Below are positions 3,562-12,619 of a stretch of 64,000 nucleotides of DNA, in pieces. This DNA is from Kordiimonas pumila (GTDB lineage: Bacteria; Pseudomonadota; Alphaproteobacteria; Sphingomonadales; Kordiimonadaceae). The first letter of the stretch is position 1. The number at the start of each line of letters is the position of its first letter. The stretch is from assembly GCF_015240255.1 (NCBI RefSeq), contig NZ_CP061205.1:1757501-1821500 (forward strand), in the 5' to 3' direction. A model generated the notes under the pieces. That model did not search any database. It was not told the DNA's origin and saw nothing but the letters and a program-made list of their open reading frames with translations. The position numbers and the translations under genes were made by a program.

Positions 3562-4500
3562 ATGTTAGGTAGAACCGCGAATGGCCTATACTGGATGTTC
3601 CGCTATATTGAGCGGGCTGAAAATATTGCCCGCCTGATTGATGCGGGCCTGCATATGGCCCTTACAAGTTATGACACCGCCGATGATGAATGGGCGTCTG
3701 TTTTGAAAAGCGCCGGTGTTGCGGATGCTTATTACCGAAAGCACGAAGAAGCGAGCGAAGCGTATGTGGTGGATTATTTGCTGCGTGACCGCGATAACCT
3801 GTCGAGCGTTATGTGTGTGGTAGAAGCTGCCCGTAATAATGCCCGTATGGTGCGCACGGCGCTTACGCGTGAAGCATGGGAATGCACCAACGAATTCTGG
3901 ATCGATATGAAGCATATATTGGGGCGTGCTGTAAGGGATGCCAGTTTACCTGATGTGCTTAATGCGATTAAGCGGCATGCAGCCCTTATTCGAGGTAGCT
4001 TTCATGGTACCATGCTGCGGAACGAGATTTTTGATTTTTCAAAAATTGGTGTGTATGTGGAACGTGCCGATAACACAGCGCGTATTCTTGATGTAAAATA
4101 TTATGTCCTGCTGCCTTCGGTGTCTTATGTGGGGTCTTCCCTAGATAATGCGCAGTGGGAATCTATTCTTCGTTCTGTATCTGCTCATAAATCATATCGC
4201 TGGATGTATGAAGCCGATCATAGTTCAGCCAATATCGCAGATTACCTTATTTTGAATGCTCGTATGCCGCGGTCACTTTCTTTCTGTTATGATAAAATCA
4301 CGGGCAGCCTGAATAATCTGGCACGGGATTACGGGCAGCGCCATCCTGTGCACGACACTGCAAATGAAATTCAGGCATGGCTTTTTAATAGAGATATTAA
4401 TGATGTTTTTGATGAGGGTTTGCATGAGTTTTTGCAAAAATTTGTGAAACGCAATAACTGCCTTGGAGCAGAAATTGCTGAAGCATATGGGTTTTATTGA
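3562..4500 (+). CDS. Alpha-E domain protein (DUF403)
   Basis: A 312-residue, largely helical protein of the alpha-E family. The opening MLGRTANGLYWMFRYIERAE is diagnostic, as is the internal VYVERADNTARILDVKYYVL repeat of the same motif near residue 170. Its role is unknown, but it consistently travels with the circularly permuted ATP-grasp protein encoded just upstream (3-nt gap). The stop overlaps the transglutaminase start as TGATG, indicating translational coupling. Confidence 0.88.
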   Translation: MLGRTANGLYWMFRYIERAENIARLIDAGLHMALTSYDTADDEWASVLKSAGVADAYYRKHEEASEAYVVDYLLRDRDNLSSVMCVVEAARNNARMVRTALTREAWECTNEFWIDMKHILGRAVRDASLPDVLNAIKRHAALIRGSFHGTMLRNEIFDFSKIGVYVERADNTARILDVKYYVLLPSVSYVGSSLDNAQWESILRSVSAHKSYRWMYEADHSSANIADYLILNARMPRSLSFCYDKITGSLNNLARDYGQRHPVHDTANEIQAWLFNRDINDVFDEGLHEFLQKFVKRNNCLGAEIAEAYGFY

Positions 4501-5294
4501 TGAACTTAAAAATAACCCACACCACAGATTATGTTTATGATGCGCCGCTGCATTATGCTTTGCAACGCCTTCGGCTTACACCGCAGGATGGCTATGGCCA
4601 AAAGGTTTTGTCGTGGCAGCTTGATCTGGAGGGCGCGAACGCAGAAGTGCCTTATGAAGATCATATGGGCAATATTACCACCCTGATCAGTTGTCACGGT
4701 GATAGCCACACAATCCGTATTCGTGTGTCTGGCGAGGTGGAGACGATTGACAGAACAGGGGTTGTAGGGCCGCATGCTGGATTTGTGCCTTTGTGGCTCT
4801 ACCTTAGGCAAACCCCTTTAACTACCCCGGGAAAAGGTATTCATAAGCTGGTTAAGGAAACGCCGCCTGCCGAGTCTCTTCCCATGCTGCATGACTTGAT
4901 GGGTCGAATCCATAAGCAGGTTATTTATAAAATTGGCATAACCACTTCAGAAACTACTGCGGAAGAGGCACTGGAACACGGCGAAGGCGTTTGTCAGGAT
5001 CACAGTCATTTGTTTATATCAGCTGCGCGTGTGTTGGGCATACCGGCGCGTTATGTAAGCGGCTATATGCTGCTTGAAGGCACAGCCGAGCAAGCTGCAA
5101 GCCACGCGTGGGCTGAGGTTCACATCGAGGACTTAGGCTGGGTTGGTTTTGATGTGGCAAATAATCAGGCGCCAGATGCGCGGTATGTGCGTATTGCAAC
5201 CGGGCTGGATTATAGTGATGCAGCACCGATTTCTGGCATTCGTCTTGGAAATGCAGAAGAATCGCTTGCTGTTTCCATTCGGATCGAGCAGTAA
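4500..5294 (+). CDS. Transglutaminase-like cysteine protease/amidase
   Basis: A 264-residue transglutaminase-family protein with the N-terminal bacterial transglutaminase domain (MNLKITHTTDYVYDAPLHYA) and a catalytic core. The nucleophile Cys sits in EHGEGVCQDHSHLFI, the His in ASHAWAEVH and the Asp in GWVGFDVANNQ. All three catalytic positions are present, so the enzyme should be active on amide or peptide bonds. ATG at 4500 is preferred over the in-frame TTG at 4497 and overlaps the preceding stop. It is the third gene of the ATP-grasp/alpha-E/Anbu operon. Confidence 0.88.
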   Translation: MNLKITHTTDYVYDAPLHYALQRLRLTPQDGYGQKVLSWQLDLEGANAEVPYEDHMGNITTLISCHGDSHTIRIRVSGEVETIDRTGVVGPHAGFVPLWLYLRQTPLTTPGKGIHKLVKETPPAESLPMLHDLMGRIHKQVIYKIGITTSETTAEEALEHGEGVCQDHSHLFISAARVLGIPARYVSGYMLLEGTAEQAASHAWAEVHIEDLGWVGFDVANNQAPDARYVRIATGLDYSDAAPISGIRLGNAEESLAVSIRIEQ

Positions 5295-5323
5295 TATGGG
5301 GTTGTTTGACTAAAGGTTTTTAC

Positions 5324-6061
5324 ATGACATACTGTGTTGGTCTTCGCCTCAATCGTGGCCTTGTTTTTATGTCTGATACCCGCACCAATGCCAGTATCGA
5401 CAATATCGCTTCGTTCAAGAAAATGTACACTTGGGAACGCCCTGGCGATCGCATGCTCACACTTTTGTCTGCTGGGAATTTGGCGACAACGCAGGCTGTT
5501 ATTGGCCTTCTTGAAGAGCGCAGTAAAGCCGCAGATAATCGCACGCCTAGTATATATGATGCGCCGTCCCTGTTTCAGGTTGCGCGGCTCATCGGTGATA
5601 CAGTGAAGGAAGTTATTCGTATTAGTGCCGACGGTGGCCAAAAGGGTGAGGCAACTTTTGGGGCCTCCTTCATTCTGGGTGGGCAAATTAAAGGCGGGGA
5701 AACACGGCTTTTTCAAATTTACCCGGAAGGTAACTTTATTGAGGCGACGGTTGATACGCCTTTCTTTCAGATAGGCGAGCATAAATACGGCAAACCTATT
5801 TTGGTGCGTGCGTATGATGCTGATATGAGCTTTGAGGAAGCAGCCAAGCTTTTGCTGGTTTCGTTTGATTCAACGCTGCGGTCCAACCTTTCTGTTGGGT
5901 TACCTCTTGATATGCAGTTTTATGAGGCGGGTAGCTTAAAGCGTGGTTATGAACGCCGAATAGAACAGCATGATCCCTATTTTAGCGCTATATCTGATGG
6001 ATGGTCAGATGCGCTTAAGGTTGCTTTTTTAAGCCTGCCGCCGTTTGATCCAAACGCCTAA
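5324..6061 (+). CDS. Anbu, proteasome-like N-terminal-nucleophile peptidase
   Basis: A 245-residue Anbu (ancestral beta-subunit) protease. Starting at ATG 5324 gives MTYCVGLRLN, which leaves Thr2 as the N-terminal nucleophile after Met removal. A TTG at 5306 would bury it, so the later start is chosen. The proteasome/HslV-like Asp lies in MSDTRTNA and the Lys in SFKKMY. Anbu assembles into an open-ring or helical cytosolic particle with no known ATPase partner. It closes the operon with ATP-grasp, alpha-E and transglutaminase, and its stop overlaps the convergent M20 hydrolase gene by 4 nt. Confidence 0.9.
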   Translation: MTYCVGLRLNRGLVFMSDTRTNASIDNIASFKKMYTWERPGDRMLTLLSAGNLATTQAVIGLLEERSKAADNRTPSIYDAPSLFQVARLIGDTVKEVIRISADGGQKGEATFGASFILGGQIKGGETRLFQIYPEGNFIEATVDTPFFQIGEHKYGKPILVRAYDADMSFEEAAKLLLVSFDSTLRSNLSVGLPLDMQFYEAGSLKRGYERRIEQHDPYFSAISDGWSDALKVAFLSLPPFDPNA

Positions 6062-7290
6062 TCTGTTGCCAGATCAATAAGACAGTCAAGCAGCACATTC
6101 GAGCCGCGCTCAATATCTATCCAGTGGGTCCATTCGTCTGGTGCATGGCTTACACCGCCTACACTGGGGACAAAAATTAGGCCCGTTTCAGTAATTTCTG
6201 TGAAAAACTGGCAATCATGACCAGCGCCAGAGGGCATGCGAATGTAACTATAATCGCGGCTTTTGGTTTTCTGTTCAATCATGTTTACAATATTACTGCT
6301 GCAATATTTTGGCTCCAGCCAGCTCATTTCTTCATATTCGAACATTAGGCGGTGTTTTCGGGCAATGGTGGAAAGTACCCGGCGGCATGCGTTCGCAAGC
6401 CCTTTCATAACATCTTCATCAAGGTCGCGGCCTACAATGGTGAAATCAACTTCGCCGGGAACTGTATGCGGAAAGCCGGGTTTTAGCTCAACGTGGCCTA
6501 TGGTGATGCGAGATTTTTCAGTGCCTTCTTCATCAATGATACGCTGTATTTGGTGTGCAAAATCGGCAAGCCCCAAGAAGGCATCGCTGCGCATATTCAT
6601 AGGGGCAGTGCCTGCATGGTCTGCCTTGCCTATAAGGCGCACAATCCATTTAAACACACCAGAAATACCATCCACTACGCCGATTGTCTTTTTTTCGGCC
6701 TCCAGAACTGGGCCTTGTTCCACATGGAGTTCAAGGAAGGCTTTTAGCTTGTTTCTGTCGTGGTAGGCATGCATTACACCGTGATAGTCAAGCCCGTGGT
6801 CTGCCATGGCATCTTTTAGGAAAATACCGTTCTCATCCTTGGCATTCTCAAGCCATGCAAGGGTAATATTGCCGGTAAGGGCCTGTGATCCTAGCATGCC
6901 GCCAAAGCGGCCTTCCTCTTCGCTGGTGCCAACAATTTCAATGGGATAATCAAGCTGAATATTATTATCTCTAATTGTGCGAACACACTCAAGCCCGCTG
7001 ATAACGCCGAGGGCACCGTCAAAAATGCCCCCTGCTGGCACGCTATCAATGTGTGAACCAGCCATAACAACGGGTTTATCCATGCTGCCATAACGGCCTA
7101 TAACATTGCCTGCGCCGTCCATGCGGGGGGTAAGGCCTTCTTTTTCAAATAGCTCCATTAGCCAGCGCCGTGCGGCCATGTCAGCTTCGGTAAAGCTTTG
7201 TCTGTACACGCCTTTATTGGTTTCGTTGAAGCCGAATCTGGAGAGTTCAAACAAATCCCGTTCAATTCTTTCAACTGAAACATTTGGCAT
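6058..7290 (-). CDS. M20-family Zn-dependent N-carbamoyl/allantoate amidohydrolase
   Basis: A 410-residue member of the hydantoinase/carbamoylase subfamily of M20 metallohydrolases (allantoate amidohydrolase, N-carbamoyl-L-amino-acid hydrolase, beta-ureidopropionase). Metal ligands are visible: His80 in AGSHIDSVPAGG, Asp91 in GIFDGALGV, the EEEGRFG glutamates near 125, LELHVEQGP, and a late His in PSGAGHDCQFF. The family releases CO2 and ammonia from carbamoyl-substituted amines; the exact substrate cannot be read from the sequence. The start at 7290 has AAAGGTAG upstream. It diverges from the symporter/transcarbamylase/asparagine-synthetase operon, which suggests a shared ureido or carbamoyl substrate theme. 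Confidence 0.85.
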   Translation of the reverse strand: MPNVSVERIERDLFELSRFGFNETNKGVYRQSFTEADMAARRWLMELFEKEGLTPRMDGAGNVIGRYGSMDKPVVMAGSHIDSVPAGGIFDGALGVISGLECVRTIRDNNIQLDYPIEIVGTSEEEGRFGGMLGSQALTGNITLAWLENAKDENGIFLKDAMADHGLDYHGVMHAYHDRNKLKAFLELHVEQGPVLEAEKKTIGVVDGISGVFKWIVRLIGKADHAGTAPMNMRSDAFLGLADFAHQIQRIIDEEGTEKSRITIGHVELKPGFPHTVPGEVDFTIVGRDLDEDVMKGLANACRRVLSTIARKHRLMFEYEEMSWLEPKYCSSNIVNMIEQKTKSRDYSYIRMPSGAGHDCQFFTEITETGLIFVPSVGGVSHAPDEWTHWIDIERGSNVLLDCLIDLATD

Positions 7291-7423
7291 GTACGCTACC
7301 TTTAATTGTTAACCTGAGATGACTTTATAGCATCATGACAGAAAAATATTGAGAATAAATAGTTTGAATTCAAAAAATATTTCCCTATGATTGACTGCCA
7401 AACACGACAGGAGGACCCTGTTG

Positions 7424-7480
7424 ATGCAACATAATACAGGTATTATACGGCGGCTGGTAACGGCAATTTTTTTCACATGA
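7424..7480 (+). CDS. Possible 18-residue leader ORF ahead of the Fn3-like membrane protein
   Basis: ATG at 7424 follows a perfect AGGAGG (7409-7414) with 9-nt spacing and encodes 18 residues (MQHNTGIIRRLVTAIFFT) ending in a TGA. That stop overlaps the ATG of the next gene as ATGA at 7477. The next gene has no good ribosome site of its own, so this ORF probably drives coupled translation. It ends in a run of seven T; one extra T would fuse the two frames into a single protein starting at 7424. A sequencing indel or slippage is therefore an alternative. Confidence 0.5.
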   Translation: MQHNTGIIRRLVTAIFFT

Positions 7481-7875
7481 TTATTAGGTTTATTATAGTA
7501 TTGGTGCTTTTTTGCGCGCCAGCGTCATATGCTTTTTCGGCAGACTTATATGTATCTGATGATGGCTCTGCAGCTGGCTACGTAACTCTTGCGTGGCCAG
7601 ATGTTTCTGGTAAGTCCTTTGTTCTCGAAGAGAAAAAAGGCCAGGTGTGGCAAGAAGTTTATGAAGGCCCTGACCGCGCAACAACCCTAAGTGGCTTACC
7701 GAACGGAACCTATGGTTTCAGGCTAACTGCGGATCAGGGTACGCATGCTATCGAGGTTTCCATCCAACATCATTCACTGGCACGGGCATGGCTTTTCTTT
7801 GCTGTTGGGGCAGGTATGTTCCTGCTTCTTGTTGGAATGTTGCTGGTTGGCACCAGAAAAAACACAGAAGCATAA
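7477..7875 (+). CDS. Exported fibronectin-III-like protein with C-terminal membrane anchor
   Basis: A 132-residue protein with an N-terminal signal peptide (residues 1-22, cleavage likely after ASYAFSA). It has a short beta-sandwich resembling a fibronectin type III fold (GYVTLAWPDVSGKSFVLEE ... TTLSGLPNGTYGFRLTA) and a transmembrane helix at about residues 104-125, followed by a basic tail. The topology puts the Fn3-like domain in the periplasm. It sits 21 nt upstream of the symporter gene and probably belongs to the same transport unit as an accessory subunit. The specific function is unknown. Its start appears coupled to the upstream 18-codon ORF. Confidence 0.7.
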   Translation: MIIRFIIVLVLFCAPASYAFSADLYVSDDGSAAGYVTLAWPDVSGKSFVLEEKKGQVWQEVYEGPDRATTLSGLPNGTYGFRLTADQGTHAIEVSIQHHSLARAWLFFAVGAGMFLLLVGMLLVGTRKNTEA

Positions 7876-7896
7876 AGGCATAGAAGGGACCGAACC

Positions 7897-9339
7897 ATGA
7901 ATGCTAATGCTGTTCTCCCAGCGTCTTATGCTTGGGCTATCATTGCCGGTTTTTCCATTTTGTGGATTTGGCTTGGCTGGTGGCTTGGTAAAAAGAATGA
8001 CAGCCTAGAAGACTACATGCTCGCCGGGCGCAAAGTAGGAATGGGTTTTGCAATAGCAACAGCCATGGCGACATGGGTGACAAGCAATACCACCATGACC
8101 GCGCCGCAGCTTGCATACCAGCTTGGTATATGGGGCATGGTTGGCTATTCGCTTGGTGCTGTTGGGCTGCTTTTGTTTGCGCCGCTCGCAAAACGTATCC
8201 GCGAGATGATGCCGCAAGGCTATACCAGTGGCGACTTTATCAGGCTGCGCTACGGCAATGTTGCATGGCGTGTTTTTCTGGGTATTTCATTTTTCTACAG
8301 TCTTGGCTGGCTTGTTAGCCTTGGCATGGCAGGTGGTTTGCTGATTAACGCTCTATCCGGCATTCCCTATGCGTACGGCATGACAGTGATTGTTGCCATT
8401 TGTACCCTTTATACAGTGTTTGGTGGCTTGCGGGCGGTGATAAGTACCGATTTTGTGCAGACCCTTCTTATTCTTATTGGGGTTATTGTACTTGCAATCA
8501 TGGTGATGAATGAAGTGGGTTTTGATACTATTCATGACCGCCTGCAGGAAGAGCGCCCTGAGCTTCTAAACCTGCTGCTGCCTGCCTCAATTATGTTTTT
8601 GTTCAATAACCTGTTTTTTGGTGTGGGTGAAATTTTCCATTCTAACGTTTGGTGGTCTAGGGCTTTTGCTTTTGCACCGGGTGTGGGCTTTCGGGCTTAT
8701 ATTCTGGCGGGTGTGTTTTGGCTTCCTATCCCTATTGTTGCGGGTTTTATTGCTCTGGCGGCACCCGCACTTGGCATTAATGTGCCGTCGCCTGATATGG
8801 TTGCGCCGCTGGTTGCTGGAAAGCTGTTTGGCCTTTTCGGGGCTATTGTGGTGTTCGTTGTAGTGTTTTCAGCGCTTGCCTCCAGCCTCGATAGTGTGCT
8901 TGCGGCCACCAGCGACCTGATTGTTAAAGACATTTATAAGGGGCATATGCGCCCAGATGCAACGAATGCAGAACTGCGGCGTGCCGCTGTCTGGATTATT
9001 CTTGGGCTTGGCGCATTAACATGGGCATTAAGTTTGCCGAAGCTGGCAACCTTGGGCTCGCTTTTGCATTTTACCGGCGCTTTTGTTGCCAGCACCATCT
9101 GGCCTATTGCTATTGGCTTGCTGTTCAGGCGTGGTAACGGCCTGCAGGCAACTGCCGCCATGCTTTTAGGCACAGCTTTGGGGCTTTATGCCTATTTCAC
9201 TATTGGTTTTTATGTGGCGGCACTTGTTTCTGCCGCGGTGTCAATGCTTGTTATGGTAACTGCTTTCTGGACAAAACCATCGTTTGAATGGGCAACGCTT
9301 CAGGGTGCTTCCCGTACTAAAAATGGAGAAACAACATGA
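7897..9339 (+). CDS. Sodium:solute symporter (SSS family)
   Basis: A 480-residue polytopic membrane protein with about 13 hydrophobic segments. The family features are the LEDYMLAGRKVG segment after helix 1, the unwound first core helix ATAMATWVTSNTTM, and the late VFSALASSLDSVLAATSDLI sodium-site helix. The stretch GYTSGDFIRLRYG after helix 3 faintly recalls the urea-transporting DUR3 branch, but the substrate is not determined. The context of an N-carbamoyl hydrolase and a transcarbamylase suggests a ureido or amide solute. The stop overlaps the next small ORF (ATGA). Confidence 0.85.
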   Translation: MNANAVLPASYAWAIIAGFSILWIWLGWWLGKKNDSLEDYMLAGRKVGMGFAIATAMATWVTSNTTMTAPQLAYQLGIWGMVGYSLGAVGLLLFAPLAKRIREMMPQGYTSGDFIRLRYGNVAWRVFLGISFFYSLGWLVSLGMAGGLLINALSGIPYAYGMTVIVAICTLYTVFGGLRAVISTDFVQTLLILIGVIVLAIMVMNEVGFDTIHDRLQEERPELLNLLLPASIMFLFNNLFFGVGEIFHSNVWWSRAFAFAPGVGFRAYILAGVFWLPIPIVAGFIALAAPALGINVPSPDMVAPLVAGKLFGLFGAIVVFVVVFSALASSLDSVLAATSDLIVKDIYKGHMRPDATNAELRRAAVWIILGLGALTWALSLPKLATLGSLLHFTGAFVASTIWPIAIGLLFRRGNGLQATAAMLLGTALGLYAYFTIGFYVAALVSAAVSMLVMVTAFWTKPSFEWATLQGASRTKNGETT

Positions 9340-9455
9340 TTTCTGCCACTGGGCTTGCCTTGTTCGTGGTGCCTGCTTTGGGTCTTACCTGTCTTGCGCC
9401 TGTTGTTTTGGTGTATTTTGTTCTGCGCGATGTTAAGGAGAAAACCCTATGGTAG
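9336..9455 (+). CDS. 39-residue membrane peptide between symporter and transcarbamylase
   Basis: A short ORF that starts at ATG 9336 inside the symporter stop (ATGA) and ends at TAG 9453-9455, seven bases inside the transcarbamylase gene. It has a GGAG ribosome site at 9324-9327. It encodes one hydrophobic helix of about 22 residues (TGLALFVVPALGLTCLAPVV core) followed by a charged tail RDVKEKTLW. The double overlap argues for real, coupled translation. It resembles the tiny accessory subunits seen beside some secondary transporters. No family recognised. Confidence 0.65.
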   Translation: MISATGLALFVVPALGLTCLAPVVLVYFVLRDVKEKTLW

Positions 9456-10546
9456 TTCAGGGGGCTGAAAAGGCCATTGTTGACGGCGCTGGATCGTTTG
9501 AACCGTCACGACCTGATGTATATGGGGCCGCGCACCCAAAAGACATGCTGCGTGCTATCCATGAAGAGCACGAGCACCTTTTGTCGCTTGCAAATAGCCA
9601 TATCGTTTCTGCGGCGCAGTTTAACCGCGACCTGCTGTTGCAGCTTTTCAGGCTTGCCGCAAAATATGAAGCCAACCCGGAACGGTTTTCTACTCCCATG
9701 AAGCCGCTTTCTGGCAAACTGTTGATTAGTGCTTTTTACGAGCCTTCAACACGCACGCGTTTAAGTTTTGAAAGCGCATGGCACCGGCTTGGCGGCGATA
9801 TTATGTCGATCACAGACCGGTCCACCACAGGTATTGCCAAGGGGGAAAGCCTTTCTGACGTTGCTGAAATGTTCAATAACTACGGTGACTGTGTTGTGCT
9901 GCGCGATAATAGTGAAGATTCTGTTGTAGCTATGATGGACACATTGCGTATCCCTATTATAAATGCGGGTAATGGTACAGACGAGCACCCGACACAGGCA
10001 CTGGCAGACCTTTATACCATTTTGAAATGGCGTCCTGATCTGATTGCAGATGAACCGGCTGAGCGTATAAAAATAGGCATTATTGGTGTTCCTAAGCGCA
10101 TGCGTACGGTTAGAAGCCTCTTGATGTTGTTAACGCAGTTTTCAAGCGCGATTGACGAGGTTGTCGTCATTCATGATGGTACAGATACAGACCTTTTTGG
10201 TGCGGGCCAGCGTGAAAAGCTTGAAGCTGGTGGCCTTGTTATCAGCGAAAGTACCAACCTTAATAAAACATTGCCAGAGCTTGATGTGGTTTACATTAAT
10301 GCGATCGCTTGGGTGAAAGATGATTTTGAGGTTATGGGCGGCAGTTTGAAGCTTGATGCCCAGTCGCCTTTAAAGCCAACTGCAATTATTTTGCACCCAC
10401 TTGCACGCGGGGAAGAACTATGCACCTCGCTCGATAATACATTGCACAACTGGTATTTTGCGCAGGCACGCGGTGCAGTCTTTATGCGCATGGCCCTACT
10501 TACTTGTATTGTGCAGCGAACTGATATGGTCATGGATGTGCTTTAG
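9449..10546 (+). CDS. Aspartate-transcarbamylase-like protein with altered second-substrate site
   Basis: A 365-residue carbamoyltransferase with an N-terminal extension of about 60 residues compared with E. coli PyrB. The carbamoyl-phosphate site is intact: STRTR at 100-104, the Lys of AKGESL (131), Arg152 in VVLRD, and His180/Gln183 in DEHPTQALADLY. A PyrB Arg167 equivalent is at 219. In contrast, the PyrB segment that carries the aspartate-binding Arg229 and Gln231 reads INAIAWVK here (283-290), and the HPLPR loop is HPLAR (316-320). The second substrate is therefore probably not aspartate. A strong AAGGAG site (9435-9440) precedes the ATG. It is co-transcribed with an SSS symporter and followed by an asparagine-synthetase paralogue. 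Confidence 0.75.
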   Translation: MVVQGAEKAIVDGAGSFEPSRPDVYGAAHPKDMLRAIHEEHEHLLSLANSHIVSAAQFNRDLLLQLFRLAAKYEANPERFSTPMKPLSGKLLISAFYEPSTRTRLSFESAWHRLGGDIMSITDRSTTGIAKGESLSDVAEMFNNYGDCVVLRDNSEDSVVAMMDTLRIPIINAGNGTDEHPTQALADLYTILKWRPDLIADEPAERIKIGIIGVPKRMRTVRSLLMLLTQFSSAIDEVVVIHDGTDTDLFGAGQREKLEAGGLVISESTNLNKTLPELDVVYINAIAWVKDDFEVMGGSLKLDAQSPLKPTAIILHPLARGEELCTSLDNTLHNWYFAQARGAVFMRMALLTCIVQRTDMVMDVL

Positions 10547-10603
10547 GTCGTTTGCCTTTCACTCCTATCCATTCCCCCAGACTTTAAGAAAGCAGAAAAT
10601 ATT

Positions 10604-12619
10604 ATGTGCGGCATTGCCGGAATTTTTTACAGAGACAAACAACGCCCCGTTGATCAACAGCTTCTCGCTAATATGGCAGCAATACAGTATCACAGGGGCC
10701 CAGATGGTTTTGGTGTGGAAGTTCTGGACGGCAAAGGTGTGGGATTTTCGCATGCCCGGCTTTCAATTATTGATTTGGATGAAAATCGTGCGCGCCAACC
10801 TTTTAAAAGCGCTGATGGCCAAATGTTGCTTGCTCATAACGGCGAGTTTTATGATTATCAGCGTATAAGAACAGACCTCACAAGCAGGGGTGCCCGGTTT
10901 CAAACCAAAAGTGACAGTGAAATTATCCTGCATCTATTTCCGCGTTTTGGTATGGCAGAAACGCTGCGCCGGCTGCGCGGCGAGTTCGCTTTTGCATTGT
11001 ATGATGCAAAAGAAGATGCCTTGCATCTGGTGCGCGACAGGTTTGGCGTGAAGCCGCTGTATTATTACACCACCGATGACGGGGTTGTGTTTGGGTCTGA
11101 AATTAAAGTTGTGATGGCGCACCCCGGTGTACCGCGCGAGTTTGACAGTGAAGGCTTACTCCACCAGTTAATGCAGGTTATGGTGCCGGGCACCACGGCC
11201 TATAAAGGCATTCATCAGGTGAAGCCAGGGCATGTTGTAACCTTCCGCAGGCAAAGCTCTGGTTACGTTATTGAAGATAAACCCTATTGGGATTTTGAAT
11301 TTCCTGATGCCGCTTTTCATAAGGGCGAAAAAAGCGAAGAAGAAAGCATTGAAACTGTTCGCGAAGGCTTAACCGAAGCTGTACGCCTGCGTTTGGAGGC
11401 GGATGTGCCGGTTGGGTGTTATCTCTCAGGCGGGGTGGATAGCTGCTCCATTCTTGGGCTTTCTGCTGCTATGCGCCAAAACCCGGTGAAAGCTTTTACC
11501 ATTGGTTTTACAGATGCCGCATACGATGAAACACCTATTGCACAGGAAATGGCGCAAGCAACCGGGGCTGATCAGGATATTCTACGGCTTGATGCGAACC
11601 AGCTTTATGGCCATTTTGCAGAGACAATCTGGCATACAGAGCGCACGGTTTATAATACGCTTGCCGTCGCCAAGTTTTTAATGAGCCGCCATGTGCGGGG
11701 AGCGGGCTATAAGGTTGTGGTAACAGGCGAAGGTTCAGACGAATTGTTTGCTGGCTATCCGTCTTTCCGCCGAGATCTTTTCCTGCACGGGCTTGATGAT
11801 CTGGACCCAGCGGAGCGTGCACGCTGGGAATCAATGCTGGGTGAAAGCAACAAGCTGTTTAAAGGGGCAATGCTTGCTGAAAATGAGCATAATGACCTGT
11901 ACCTGACCGACCGGATAGGATTTACGCCAAGCTGCTTGCAGCCTTGGCTTAGCTGCGAAGATACGGCTCGCACCCTTTTAAGCGGCGACAGGCGTTCAGC
12001 GCTTGCGGGCTATAAACCGGGCCTTGCCATTGCAGAAAAGCTTGATCGTGCGATGATGGACGGCAGGCACCCGCTAGACCGTGCACAGTATGTTTGGTCT
12101 AAAACCATGCTGGAAGGGCAGATTTTAACATGGGGCGGTGACAGGGTTGATATGGCAAATTCAATGGAGGCTCGCCCAGCGTTCCTTGATCACCATTTGG
12201 CAGAGGCTGCGGTGAAAATTCCACCCCTTCACAGGATTAAGGACCGGAAAGAAAAATATGTCTTGAAAGAGGCTATGAAAGGCCTGCTTCCAAAAACACT
12301 TTACGAACGTGAAAAGTTTGCCTTTATGGCACCGCCTGCTACCACAAATTCAGACAAATGGACTGCTATGATGGAGCTTTCGCGGGAGTATTTGTCAGAC
12401 AGCATGGTTGCGGATGGTGGCTTGCTTGATAAGCAAGGGGTGGCTGATGTGCTAGCAGAAGCGCAAAGCGATGCAACGCCGCGGGCGCGCAAGGTGCAGC
12501 TTGATGCCATGATCAACCATATGCTGGGTGTGCAGATGCTGCATAAGCATTTTATTGCTGAGGATATTCCTGCTCTTGCTGCGGTTCGTGCACAGGCTCT
12601 GGGATGGGTTGTTCACTAG
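10604..12619 (+). CDS. asnB: Asparagine synthase (glutamine-hydrolysing) paralogue
   Basis: A 671-residue two-domain amidotransferase. The class II glutaminase begins at Cys2 (MCGIAGIFYR) with RLSIID near 52, HNGEFYDY near 78 and SDSE near 103. The synthetase domain has the pyrophosphate loop SGGVDS (275-280) and TGEGSDELFAGY. It is longer than E. coli AsnB (about 550 residues), as in the large AsnB subfamilies that amidate other carboxylates. Its position behind a divergent transcarbamylase suggests a dedicated amide-forming role rather than housekeeping asparagine synthesis. A weak terminator hairpin follows at 12643. Confidence 0.8.
   Translation: MCGIAGIFYRDKQRPVDQQLLANMAAIQYHRGPDGFGVEVLDGKGVGFSHARLSIIDLDENRARQPFKSADGQMLLAHNGEFYDYQRIRTDLTSRGARFQTKSDSEIILHLFPRFGMAETLRRLRGEFAFALYDAKEDALHLVRDRFGVKPLYYYTTDDGVVFGSEIKVVMAHPGVPREFDSEGLLHQLMQVMVPGTTAYKGIHQVKPGHVVTFRRQSSGYVIEDKPYWDFEFPDAAFHKGEKSEEESIETVREGLTEAVRLRLEADVPVGCYLSGGVDSCSILGLSAAMRQNPVKAFTIGFTDAAYDETPIAQEMAQATGADQDILRLDANQLYGHFAETIWHTERTVYNTLAVAKFLMSRHVRGAGYKVVVTGEGSDELFAGYPSFRRDLFLHGLDDLDPAERARWESMLGESNKLFKGAMLAENEHNDLYLTDRIGFTPSCLQPWLSCEDTARTLLSGDRRSALAGYKPGLAIAEKLDRAMMDGRHPLDRAQYVWSKTMLEGQILTWGGDRVDMANSMEARPAFLDHHLAEAAVKIPPLHRIKDRKEKYVLKEAMKGLLPKTLYEREKFAFMAPPATTNSDKWTAMMELSREYLSDSMVADGGLLDKQGVADVLAEAQSDATPRARKVQLDAMINHMLGVQMLHKHFIAEDIPALAAVRAQALGWVVH

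What the first reader, a model, noticed from the sequence alone, without database searches (positions are those of the whole stretch)
7424..12619. Candidate undescribed carbamoyl/amide pathway built around a transcarbamylase without its aspartate site
Seen: one operon with an exported Fn3-like membrane protein, SSS symporter, 39-residue membrane peptide, ATCase-like protein and asparagine-synthetase paralogue, opposite an M20 N-carbamoyl hydrolase. The ATCase-like protein keeps the carbamoyl-phosphate residues (STRTR, Lys131, Arg152, His180, Gln183, Arg219), but the PyrB Arg229/Gln231 segment reads INAIAWVK and HPLPR is HPLAR. Known: in PyrB these residues bind aspartate. Inference: the enzyme carbamoylates, or phosphorolyses, a different amine or amide, and AsnB-like amidation and M20 decarbamoylation act on related molecules. 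The system may either import and degrade a ureido compound or make one.
Basis: partly seen in the sequence, partly recalled or inferred. Interest (0 to 1): 0.75.

Follow-up and report, generated by a model that had tools for sequence, protein, structure and literature searches.

The report
Likely operon for orphan osmolyte carbamoylglutamine-amide
[quoted passage not shown] the only bacterium in which it has been found appears to carry the same gene set.

Summary
Window 7477-12619 holds Fn3-like protein, SSS symporter, 39-aa peptide, transcarbamylase (TC) and AsnB-like amidotransferase, divergent from an M20 N-carbamoyl hydrolase. Of 126 orthologues, all keep the carbamoyl-phosphate residues and the Arg equivalent to PyrB R167. 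All aligned members replace R229/Q231 with small residues (motif YIN[AS]I[AS]W) and HPLPR with HPLAR. TC is followed by the AsnB in 80/80 named loci; the symporter is present in 79/80.

Best explanation (inferred; no biochemistry run): TC carbamoylates the alpha-amino group of L-glutamine and the AsnB-like enzyme amidates the alpha-carboxyl. [quoted passage not shown] A genome matching that type strain (35 contigs, 2.6 Mb, 68.6% GC at the locus, 93-94% identical to an E. mobilis-like genome) carries M20, a cysteine hydrolase, TC and AsnB together; TC is its only transcarbamylase besides two housekeeping-like ones. 41/47 genomes of that family carry TC, against 24/366 in the rest of a Gammaproteobacteria draw. 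A MarR/CosR-like palindrome precedes many copies. M20, the cysteine hydrolase and the symporter would recycle and take up CGA. Synthesis is favoured over degradation; the substrate is inferred.

The parts
10604..12619 (+). AsnB-like glutamine-dependent amidotransferase (671 aa); proposed to convert N-carbamoyl-L-glutamine to the 1-amide
   Evidence: TIGR01536 431 bits (cut-off 267); below cut-off for XrtA (394/817) and NAGGN (306/570) amidotransferases; starts MCGI and carries SGGVDS; directly behind TC in 80/80 named loci
9449..10546 (+). ATCase-like transcarbamylase (365 aa); proposed L-glutamine N-alpha-carbamoyltransferase
   Evidence: PF02729 139 bits; below the cut-off of every NCBIfam ATCase/OTCase model; CP residues invariant, R229/Q231 lost in 126 orthologues; AF2 model pLDDT 86, ATCase fold
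9336..9455 (+). 39-aa single-span membrane peptide, start overlapping the SSS stop; probably a symporter accessory subunit
   Evidence: found at the same place in 44/80 named loci
7897..9339 (+). SSS-family sodium:solute symporter; proposed CGA (or ureido amino acid) uptake
   Evidence: PF00474 107 bits; 79/80 named loci
7477..7875 (+). exported Fn3-like protein with signal peptide and C-terminal membrane span
   Evidence: read from the sequence, no Pfam match; 45/80 named loci by tblastn, 73 of 100 by ORF clustering
7424..7480 (+). 18-codon leader ORF behind AGGAGG, overlapping the Fn3 start codon
   Evidence: conservation only glanced at
7363..7374 (.). palindrome TTTGAATTCAAA, possible MarR/CosR-type operator in the divergent intergenic region
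   Evidence: only TTTGANNTCWAA site in 64 kb; the related motif ATTTGNNNNCAAA is enriched upstream of the operon, 11/77 v 14/2872 background windows
6058..7290 (-). M20 N-carbamoyl-L-amino-acid hydrolase (410 aa); proposed CGA/N-carbamoylglutamine turnover
   Evidence: NF006771 516 bits (cut-off 399); next best model is N-carbamyl-L-glutamate amidohydrolase ErtE, 355 bits (cut-off 520); within the locus in 38/80 named genomes and 18/20 loci of the Ectothiorhodospira family

Best explanation
[quoted passage not shown] TC transfers the carbamoyl group of carbamoyl phosphate to the alpha-amino group of L-glutamine: its conserved Arg219 (PyrB R167) holds the alpha-carboxylate, while the pocket that binds the acidic side chain in PyrB is now lined by Ala/Ser and takes the neutral carboxamide. 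The AsnB-like enzyme then amidates the alpha-carboxyl with glutamine and ATP, as the NAGGN amidotransferase does for its dipeptide. Both charges are thus masked and a neutral, osmotically useful molecule results. The SSS symporter with its small partners recovers the solute from outside. M20 (and, in Ectothiorhodospira relatives, a cysteine hydrolase of the biuret / N-carbamoylsarcosine type) breaks it down when salt falls. Shown: gene content, conservation, residue pattern, presence in a genome matching the producer strain, motif enrichment. Inferred: substrate, product, order of steps, transporter cargo, regulation.
For: Two modifying enzymes match exactly the two modifications of CGA (structure stated in PMC1224877). 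CGA is reported from one organism only, E. marismortui. G773 matches E. marismortui DSM 4180 as tabulated in PMC8877833 (35 contigs, 2,624,954 bp, 68.2% GC): exactly 35 contigs, 2.6 Mb, 68.6% GC at the locus and 93-94% identity to G824, which fits E. mobilis. It carries M20, cysteine hydrolase, TC and AsnB in a row and only three transcarbamylases, the other two scoring as the housekeeping pair. Other anchors in that family: G826 HiPIP is identical to PDB 1hpi (E. vacuolata by general knowledge) and G827 contig length 3,550,080 equals strain BSL-9. 41/47 genomes of this family have TC against 27/369 in a Gammaproteobacteria draw that includes three of that family; the other four phototrophs in the draw lack it, and the three of them tested also lack the AsnB orthologue. 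Named carriers are mostly marine or halophilic genera: Idiomarina, Kangiella, Alteromonas, Pseudoalteromonas, Kordiimonas, Nitrosomonas halophila. R229/Q231 lost, R167 kept. M20 scores next to N-carbamoyl-glutamate hydrolase. MarR-type regulator in 31/100 loci and a palindrome close to the CosR consensus TTTGA-NN-TCTAA quoted in PMC8070244.
Against: No enzyme assay, and no metabolite data from any carrier other than E. marismortui. CGA is called a minor solute there, and the papers found for Thioalkalivibrio (a genus probably within this family) describe glycine betaine, not CGA. Because 87% of the family carries TC, its presence in E. marismortui is expected whatever it makes. Residues favour a neutral side chain but do not single out glutamine, and new invariant arginines (R222, R341) could bind an acid. 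TC and ectoine synthase are not positively associated (2 genomes with both; about 3.8 expected).
Confidence: 0.7

Rival explanations
1. Same logic, different product: TC carbamoylates another neutral amino acid or an amine and AsnB amidates it, giving an unknown ureido amide (osmolyte, signal or storage compound).
For: The residue pattern suggests a neutral side chain, not glutamine itself. No other carrier was found reported to contain CGA. The transporter suggests an extracellular role in some.
Against: CGA is the one natural product known to me with exactly these two groups, and its only known producer appears to have the cassette and no other spare transcarbamylase.
Confidence: 0.15
2. Scavenging of ureido compounds: the symporter imports an N-carbamoyl amino acid or related amide, M20 and the cysteine hydrolase release ammonia, TC runs towards carbamoyl phosphate, and AsnB stores the nitrogen as asparagine.
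For: Symporter and two ureido/amide hydrolases are frequent neighbours.
Against: No carbamate kinase or other conserved catabolic gene appears among the gene families that recur in the neighbourhoods. The invariant core is TC plus an ATP-using amidotransferase, and it persists without symporter in L110 and in Ectothiorhodospira loci. In G863, where TC has no AsnB neighbour, the AsnB orthologue is kept elsewhere.
Confidence: 0.07
3. TC is a divergent aspartate transcarbamylase (pyrimidine backup or regulatory paralogue) that happens to sit with a generic asparagine synthetase.
For: Best hits by sequence and fold are ATCases. Several NCBIfam ATCase models score 150-190 bits.
Against: Below every ATCase cut-off; R229, Q231 and K232 lost throughout; separate clade with a long stem; own genome has two further transcarbamylases.
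Confidence: 0.05

Closest known systems
Aspartate transcarbamylase catalytic chain (PyrB, TIGR00670 / NF002032)
   Same: Fold (Foldseek E about 1e-26, TM to target 0.8-0.9), STRTR, K84, R105, H134, Q137, R167
   Different: R229/Q231/K232 become A/A/W-type, S80 becomes G, HPLPR becomes HPLAR, about 45-residue N-terminal extension, next to AsnB
N-acetylglutaminylglutamine amide (NAGGN) pathway, amidotransferase TIGR03104
   Same: Glutamine-based neutral osmolyte finished by an AsnB-type alpha-amidation; a MarR-type regulator (PA3458) is linked to an osmoadaptation cluster in Pseudomonas aeruginosa
   Different: Carbamoyl group from a transcarbamylase in place of N-acetylation and a second glutamine; AsnB scores 306 against a cut-off of 570
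XrtA/PEP-CTERM amidotransferase (TIGR03108)
   Same: Closest named AsnB-type subfamily after generic AsnB, 394 bits
   Different: Below its cut-off of 817; the window's own genome has a true XrtA member elsewhere, L225 with 853 bits
N-carbamoyl-L-amino-acid hydrolases, M20 (NF006771; ErtE NF058540)
   Same: M20 gene passes the NF006771 subfamily cut-off
   Different: Here paired with a transcarbamylase and an amidotransferase, not with a hydantoinase
Putrescine, acetylornithine and YgeW carbamoyltransferases
   Same: Transcarbamylase superfamily, non-aspartate substrates
   Different: Scores 70, 28 and 31-32 bits against cut-offs of 500, 288 and 453-500

Membership tests
Aspartate transcarbamylase (PyrB) | passes the curated ATCase model cut-off | tested here: not met
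   190 bits v 237 (TIGR00670); 186 v 263 (NF002032)
Aspartate transcarbamylase (PyrB) | side-chain carboxylate residues R229 and Q231 | tested here: not met
   A/S/T and A/S/T/V in all aligned orthologues
Aspartate transcarbamylase (PyrB) | carbamoyl-phosphate residues and R167 | tested here: met
   126/126 orthologues, except S80, which is Gly
Transcarbamylase superfamily | OTCace_N domain and fold | tested here: met
   PF02729 139 bits v 29.9; fold match
CGA biosynthesis (proposed) | presence in the known CGA producer | tested here: met
   G773, inferred to be E. marismortui DSM 4180, has TC and AsnB
CGA biosynthesis (proposed) | TC uses glutamine; AsnB amidates N-carbamoylglutamine | not testable with these tools
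   needs enzymes and NMR/LC-MS
NAGGN pathway | amidotransferase passes TIGR03104 | tested here: not met
   306 v 570 bits
Glutamine-dependent asparagine synthetase superfamily | N-terminal Cys, synthetase domain, TIGR01536 cut-off | tested here: met
   MCGI start, SGGVDS, 431 v 267 bits
Catabolic transcarbamylase operon | carbamate kinase in the neighbourhood | tested here: inconclusive
   no such family seen among recurring neighbours of 100 loci, judged from ORF clusters, not from a family scan of every ORF
MarR/CosR-type osmoregulation | cognate regulator bound to the operator | tested here: inconclusive
   palindrome enriched, MarR gene in 31/100 loci but not next to the window's operon; no CosR or EctR model among the NCBIfam matches

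The most novel reading that the evidence does not exclude
A new transcarbamylase specificity (L-glutamine N-alpha-carbamoyltransferase) plus a dedicated amidotransferase makes CGA an unrecognised, widespread osmolyte of marine and haloalkaliphilic proteobacteria, with its own uptake system and recycling hydrolases. It would therefore be a nitrogen-rich solute exchanged in the sea.
Probability: 0.5. Interest if true: 0.82.

Novelty: new variant of a known kind. Interest (0 to 1): 0.73.

Why it matters
CGA has been an orphan metabolite since 1991, described as found in one organism only. A two-gene candidate present in the producer and in at least a hundred other genomes would turn it into a genetically tractable osmolyte, add a substrate to the transcarbamylase superfamily, correct annotations of these proteins as aspartate carbamoyltransferase, and make a testable prediction for well-studied genera such as Idiomarina, Kangiella, Alteromonas and Pseudoalteromonas.

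Tried and rejected
Plasmid records hold no homologue at E 1e-60. The even draw from the window's phylum gave only 2 carriers of 398 and served as a weak background. Ectoine synthase as a marker of salt life was uninformative: 2 genomes with both, 3.8 expected. An ordinary PyrB paralogue was rejected on residues and cut-offs. A catabolic operon was judged unlikely for lack of a recurring carbamate kinase. Literature searches found no paper assigning genes to CGA; the library lacks most subscription journals, so an unseen report is possible. The AlphaFold model confirmed the fold, but its coordinates could not be measured, so the active-site geometry stays untested.
Full report
WHAT IS THERE. 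The window lies in a complete 4.04 Mb genome whose nearest named TC relative is Kordiimonas gwangyangensis (the window's own genus is an inference). Between 6058 and 12619 there is a divergent pair: M20 hydrolase (-), and (+) Fn3-like exported protein, SSS symporter, 39-aa membrane peptide, transcarbamylase (TC) and AsnB-like amidotransferase. One correction: Arg219 is PyrB R167, which by general knowledge of ATCase contacts the alpha-carboxylate of aspartate; it is part of the amino-acid site, not of the carbamoyl-phosphate site.

FAMILY. TC matches the OTCace_N domain clearly but fails every ATCase, OTCase, putrescine, acetylornithine and YgeW cut-off. Over 126 orthologues aligned to E. coli PyrB (sequence checked against PDB 1q95), S52-T53-R54-T55, K84, R105, H134, Q137 and R167 are invariant; R229 is Ala (103), Ser (21) or Thr (1); Q231 is Ala (91), Ser (32), Thr (1) or Val (1); K232 is Trp; S80 is Gly; HPLPR is HPLAR; one row has a gap at the C-terminal positions. 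The AlphaFold model (pLDDT 86) has the ATCase fold. A tree places TC (with two more distant paralogues) as a separate clade with 100/100 support and a long stem; some long branches make its exact neighbour unsure. Two family-invariant arginines not found in E. coli PyrB, R222 and R341, mean that a replacement for R229 is not formally excluded.

NEIGHBOURHOOD. In 80 named loci TC is followed on the same strand by the AsnB orthologue in 80, and the symporter is present in 79; Fn3 45, peptide 44, M20 38 by tblastn (locus by locus). The M20 gene lies in varying orientation and on either side, which suggests a functional link and not mere synteny. No other gene family recurs comparably outside what looks like local synteny. 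The carriers are mostly marine or halophilic genera.

THE PRODUCER. [quoted passage not shown] PMC3857566), and a 2020 genome survey of osmoadaptation in phototrophs mentions it without genes in the passages read (PMC7824335). Two of the six phototrophs, G557 and G773, share a family in which 41 of 47 genomes carry TC; the remaining draw has 24 of 366 (from, after removing the three genomes of that family). Anchors for identity: G826 encodes a HiPIP identical over 71 residues to PDB 1hpi (Ectothiorhodospira vacuolata by general knowledge). G827 contig length 3,550,080 equals Ectothiorhodospira sp. BSL-9 in PMC8877833 Table 1. G773 has exactly 35 contigs, 2.6 Mb and 68.6% GC at the locus, like E. 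marismortui DSM 4180 (35 contigs, 2,624,954 bp, 68.2%), and is 93-94% identical over 17 kb to G824 (2.8 Mb, 68.6% GC at the locus), which fits E. mobilis DSM 237 (2,796,053 bp, 68.3%, ANI 92.6% to E. marismortui). That DSM 4180 is the strain from which CGA was isolated is from memory.

In G773 the order is M20, cysteine hydrolase, TC, AsnB. The cysteine hydrolase is an isochorismatase-fold protein nearest to biuret hydrolase, N-carbamoylsarcosine amidohydrolase and RutB. G773 has three transcarbamylases; the other two have the scores of the housekeeping pair seen in every genome tested. AsnB of the cassette is 66% identical to the window's over 668 residues, while other AsnB-like proteins of the genome are at most 36%. 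G863, where TC has no AsnB neighbour, keeps the AsnB orthologue elsewhere; the three non-carrier phototrophs tested have none.

MECHANISM. Shown: the two-gene core and its neighbours, residue changes, distribution. Inferred: TC binds L-glutamine by its alpha-carboxylate (R219) with a neutral side chain where PyrB reads an acid, giving N-carbamoylglutamine; the AsnB-like enzyme makes the 1-amide. This order is favoured because R219 would otherwise have no carboxylate to bind. M20, whose second-best model is N-carbamyl-L-glutamate hydrolase, and the cysteine hydrolase would reverse the two steps; the symporter would retrieve the solute. The transport module is absent from Ectothiorhodospira loci, so it is optional.

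REGULATION (lead only). The window's divergent promoter region has TTTGAATTCAAA at 7363, the only TTTGANNTCWAA site in 64 kb. It is close to the CosR consensus TTTGA-NN-TCTAA cited in PMC8070244. Upstream of the operon ATTTGNNNNCAAA occurs in 11 of 77 loci against 14 of 2872 background windows (Fisher P 6e-12). The motif was chosen after seeing the sequence, several patterns were tried, the background windows are mostly coding, and loci are related, so the P value overstates the case. A MarR-type regulator lies in 31 of 100 loci but not in the window next to the operon. No such palindrome was found in the Ectothiorhodospira loci.

LIMITS. No biochemistry; strain names are inferred; presence in 87% of the family weakens the producer argument; no other carrier has reported CGA in the papers found; paywalled papers are not held. 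TC in strain BSL-9 looks frameshifted.

VERDICT. A real, conserved and, as far as the held literature shows, unassigned operon. The CGA assignment is specific, fits structure, producer and gene logic, and can be tested with two purified enzymes.

Noticed in passing
window 3562-6061: Alpha-E protein, transglutaminase-like protein and a proteasome-like protein in a row (the known Anbu-type cluster, by general knowledge).
   Followed up: no
window 7424-7480: 18-codon leader ORF behind a perfect AGGAGG, overlapping the Fn3 start codon by ATGA; the relatives inspected do not obviously share it.
   Followed up: partly
L220-L224: A second group of TC paralogues (36-42% identical) without a detected AsnB neighbour; those read through the region lack a normal STRTR carbamoyl-phosphate motif (e.g. 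NSRSHTRLSF in L224), so they may not be transcarbamylases. G698 carries both kinds (L212, L224).
   Followed up: partly
G827:C1:1195169-1195584: TC of the genome matching Ectothiorhodospira sp. BSL-9 is split over two frames: frameshift or sequencing error.
   Followed up: no
L183 (G863): TC beside a pep39-like peptide but with neither symporter nor AsnB adjacent; the AsnB orthologue lies elsewhere in the genome (G863:C4:2304938).
   Followed up: yes
G557 (L180): A 2.0 Mb phototroph, possibly Ectothiorhodosinus mongolicus, carries the cassette; that species is said to lack betaine and ectoine synthesis (PMC7824335), so CGA could be its main solute.
   Followed up: no
L113: The cassette in a contig labelled Cyanobium MAG (TC 64% identical), perhaps a binning error.
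   Followed up: no
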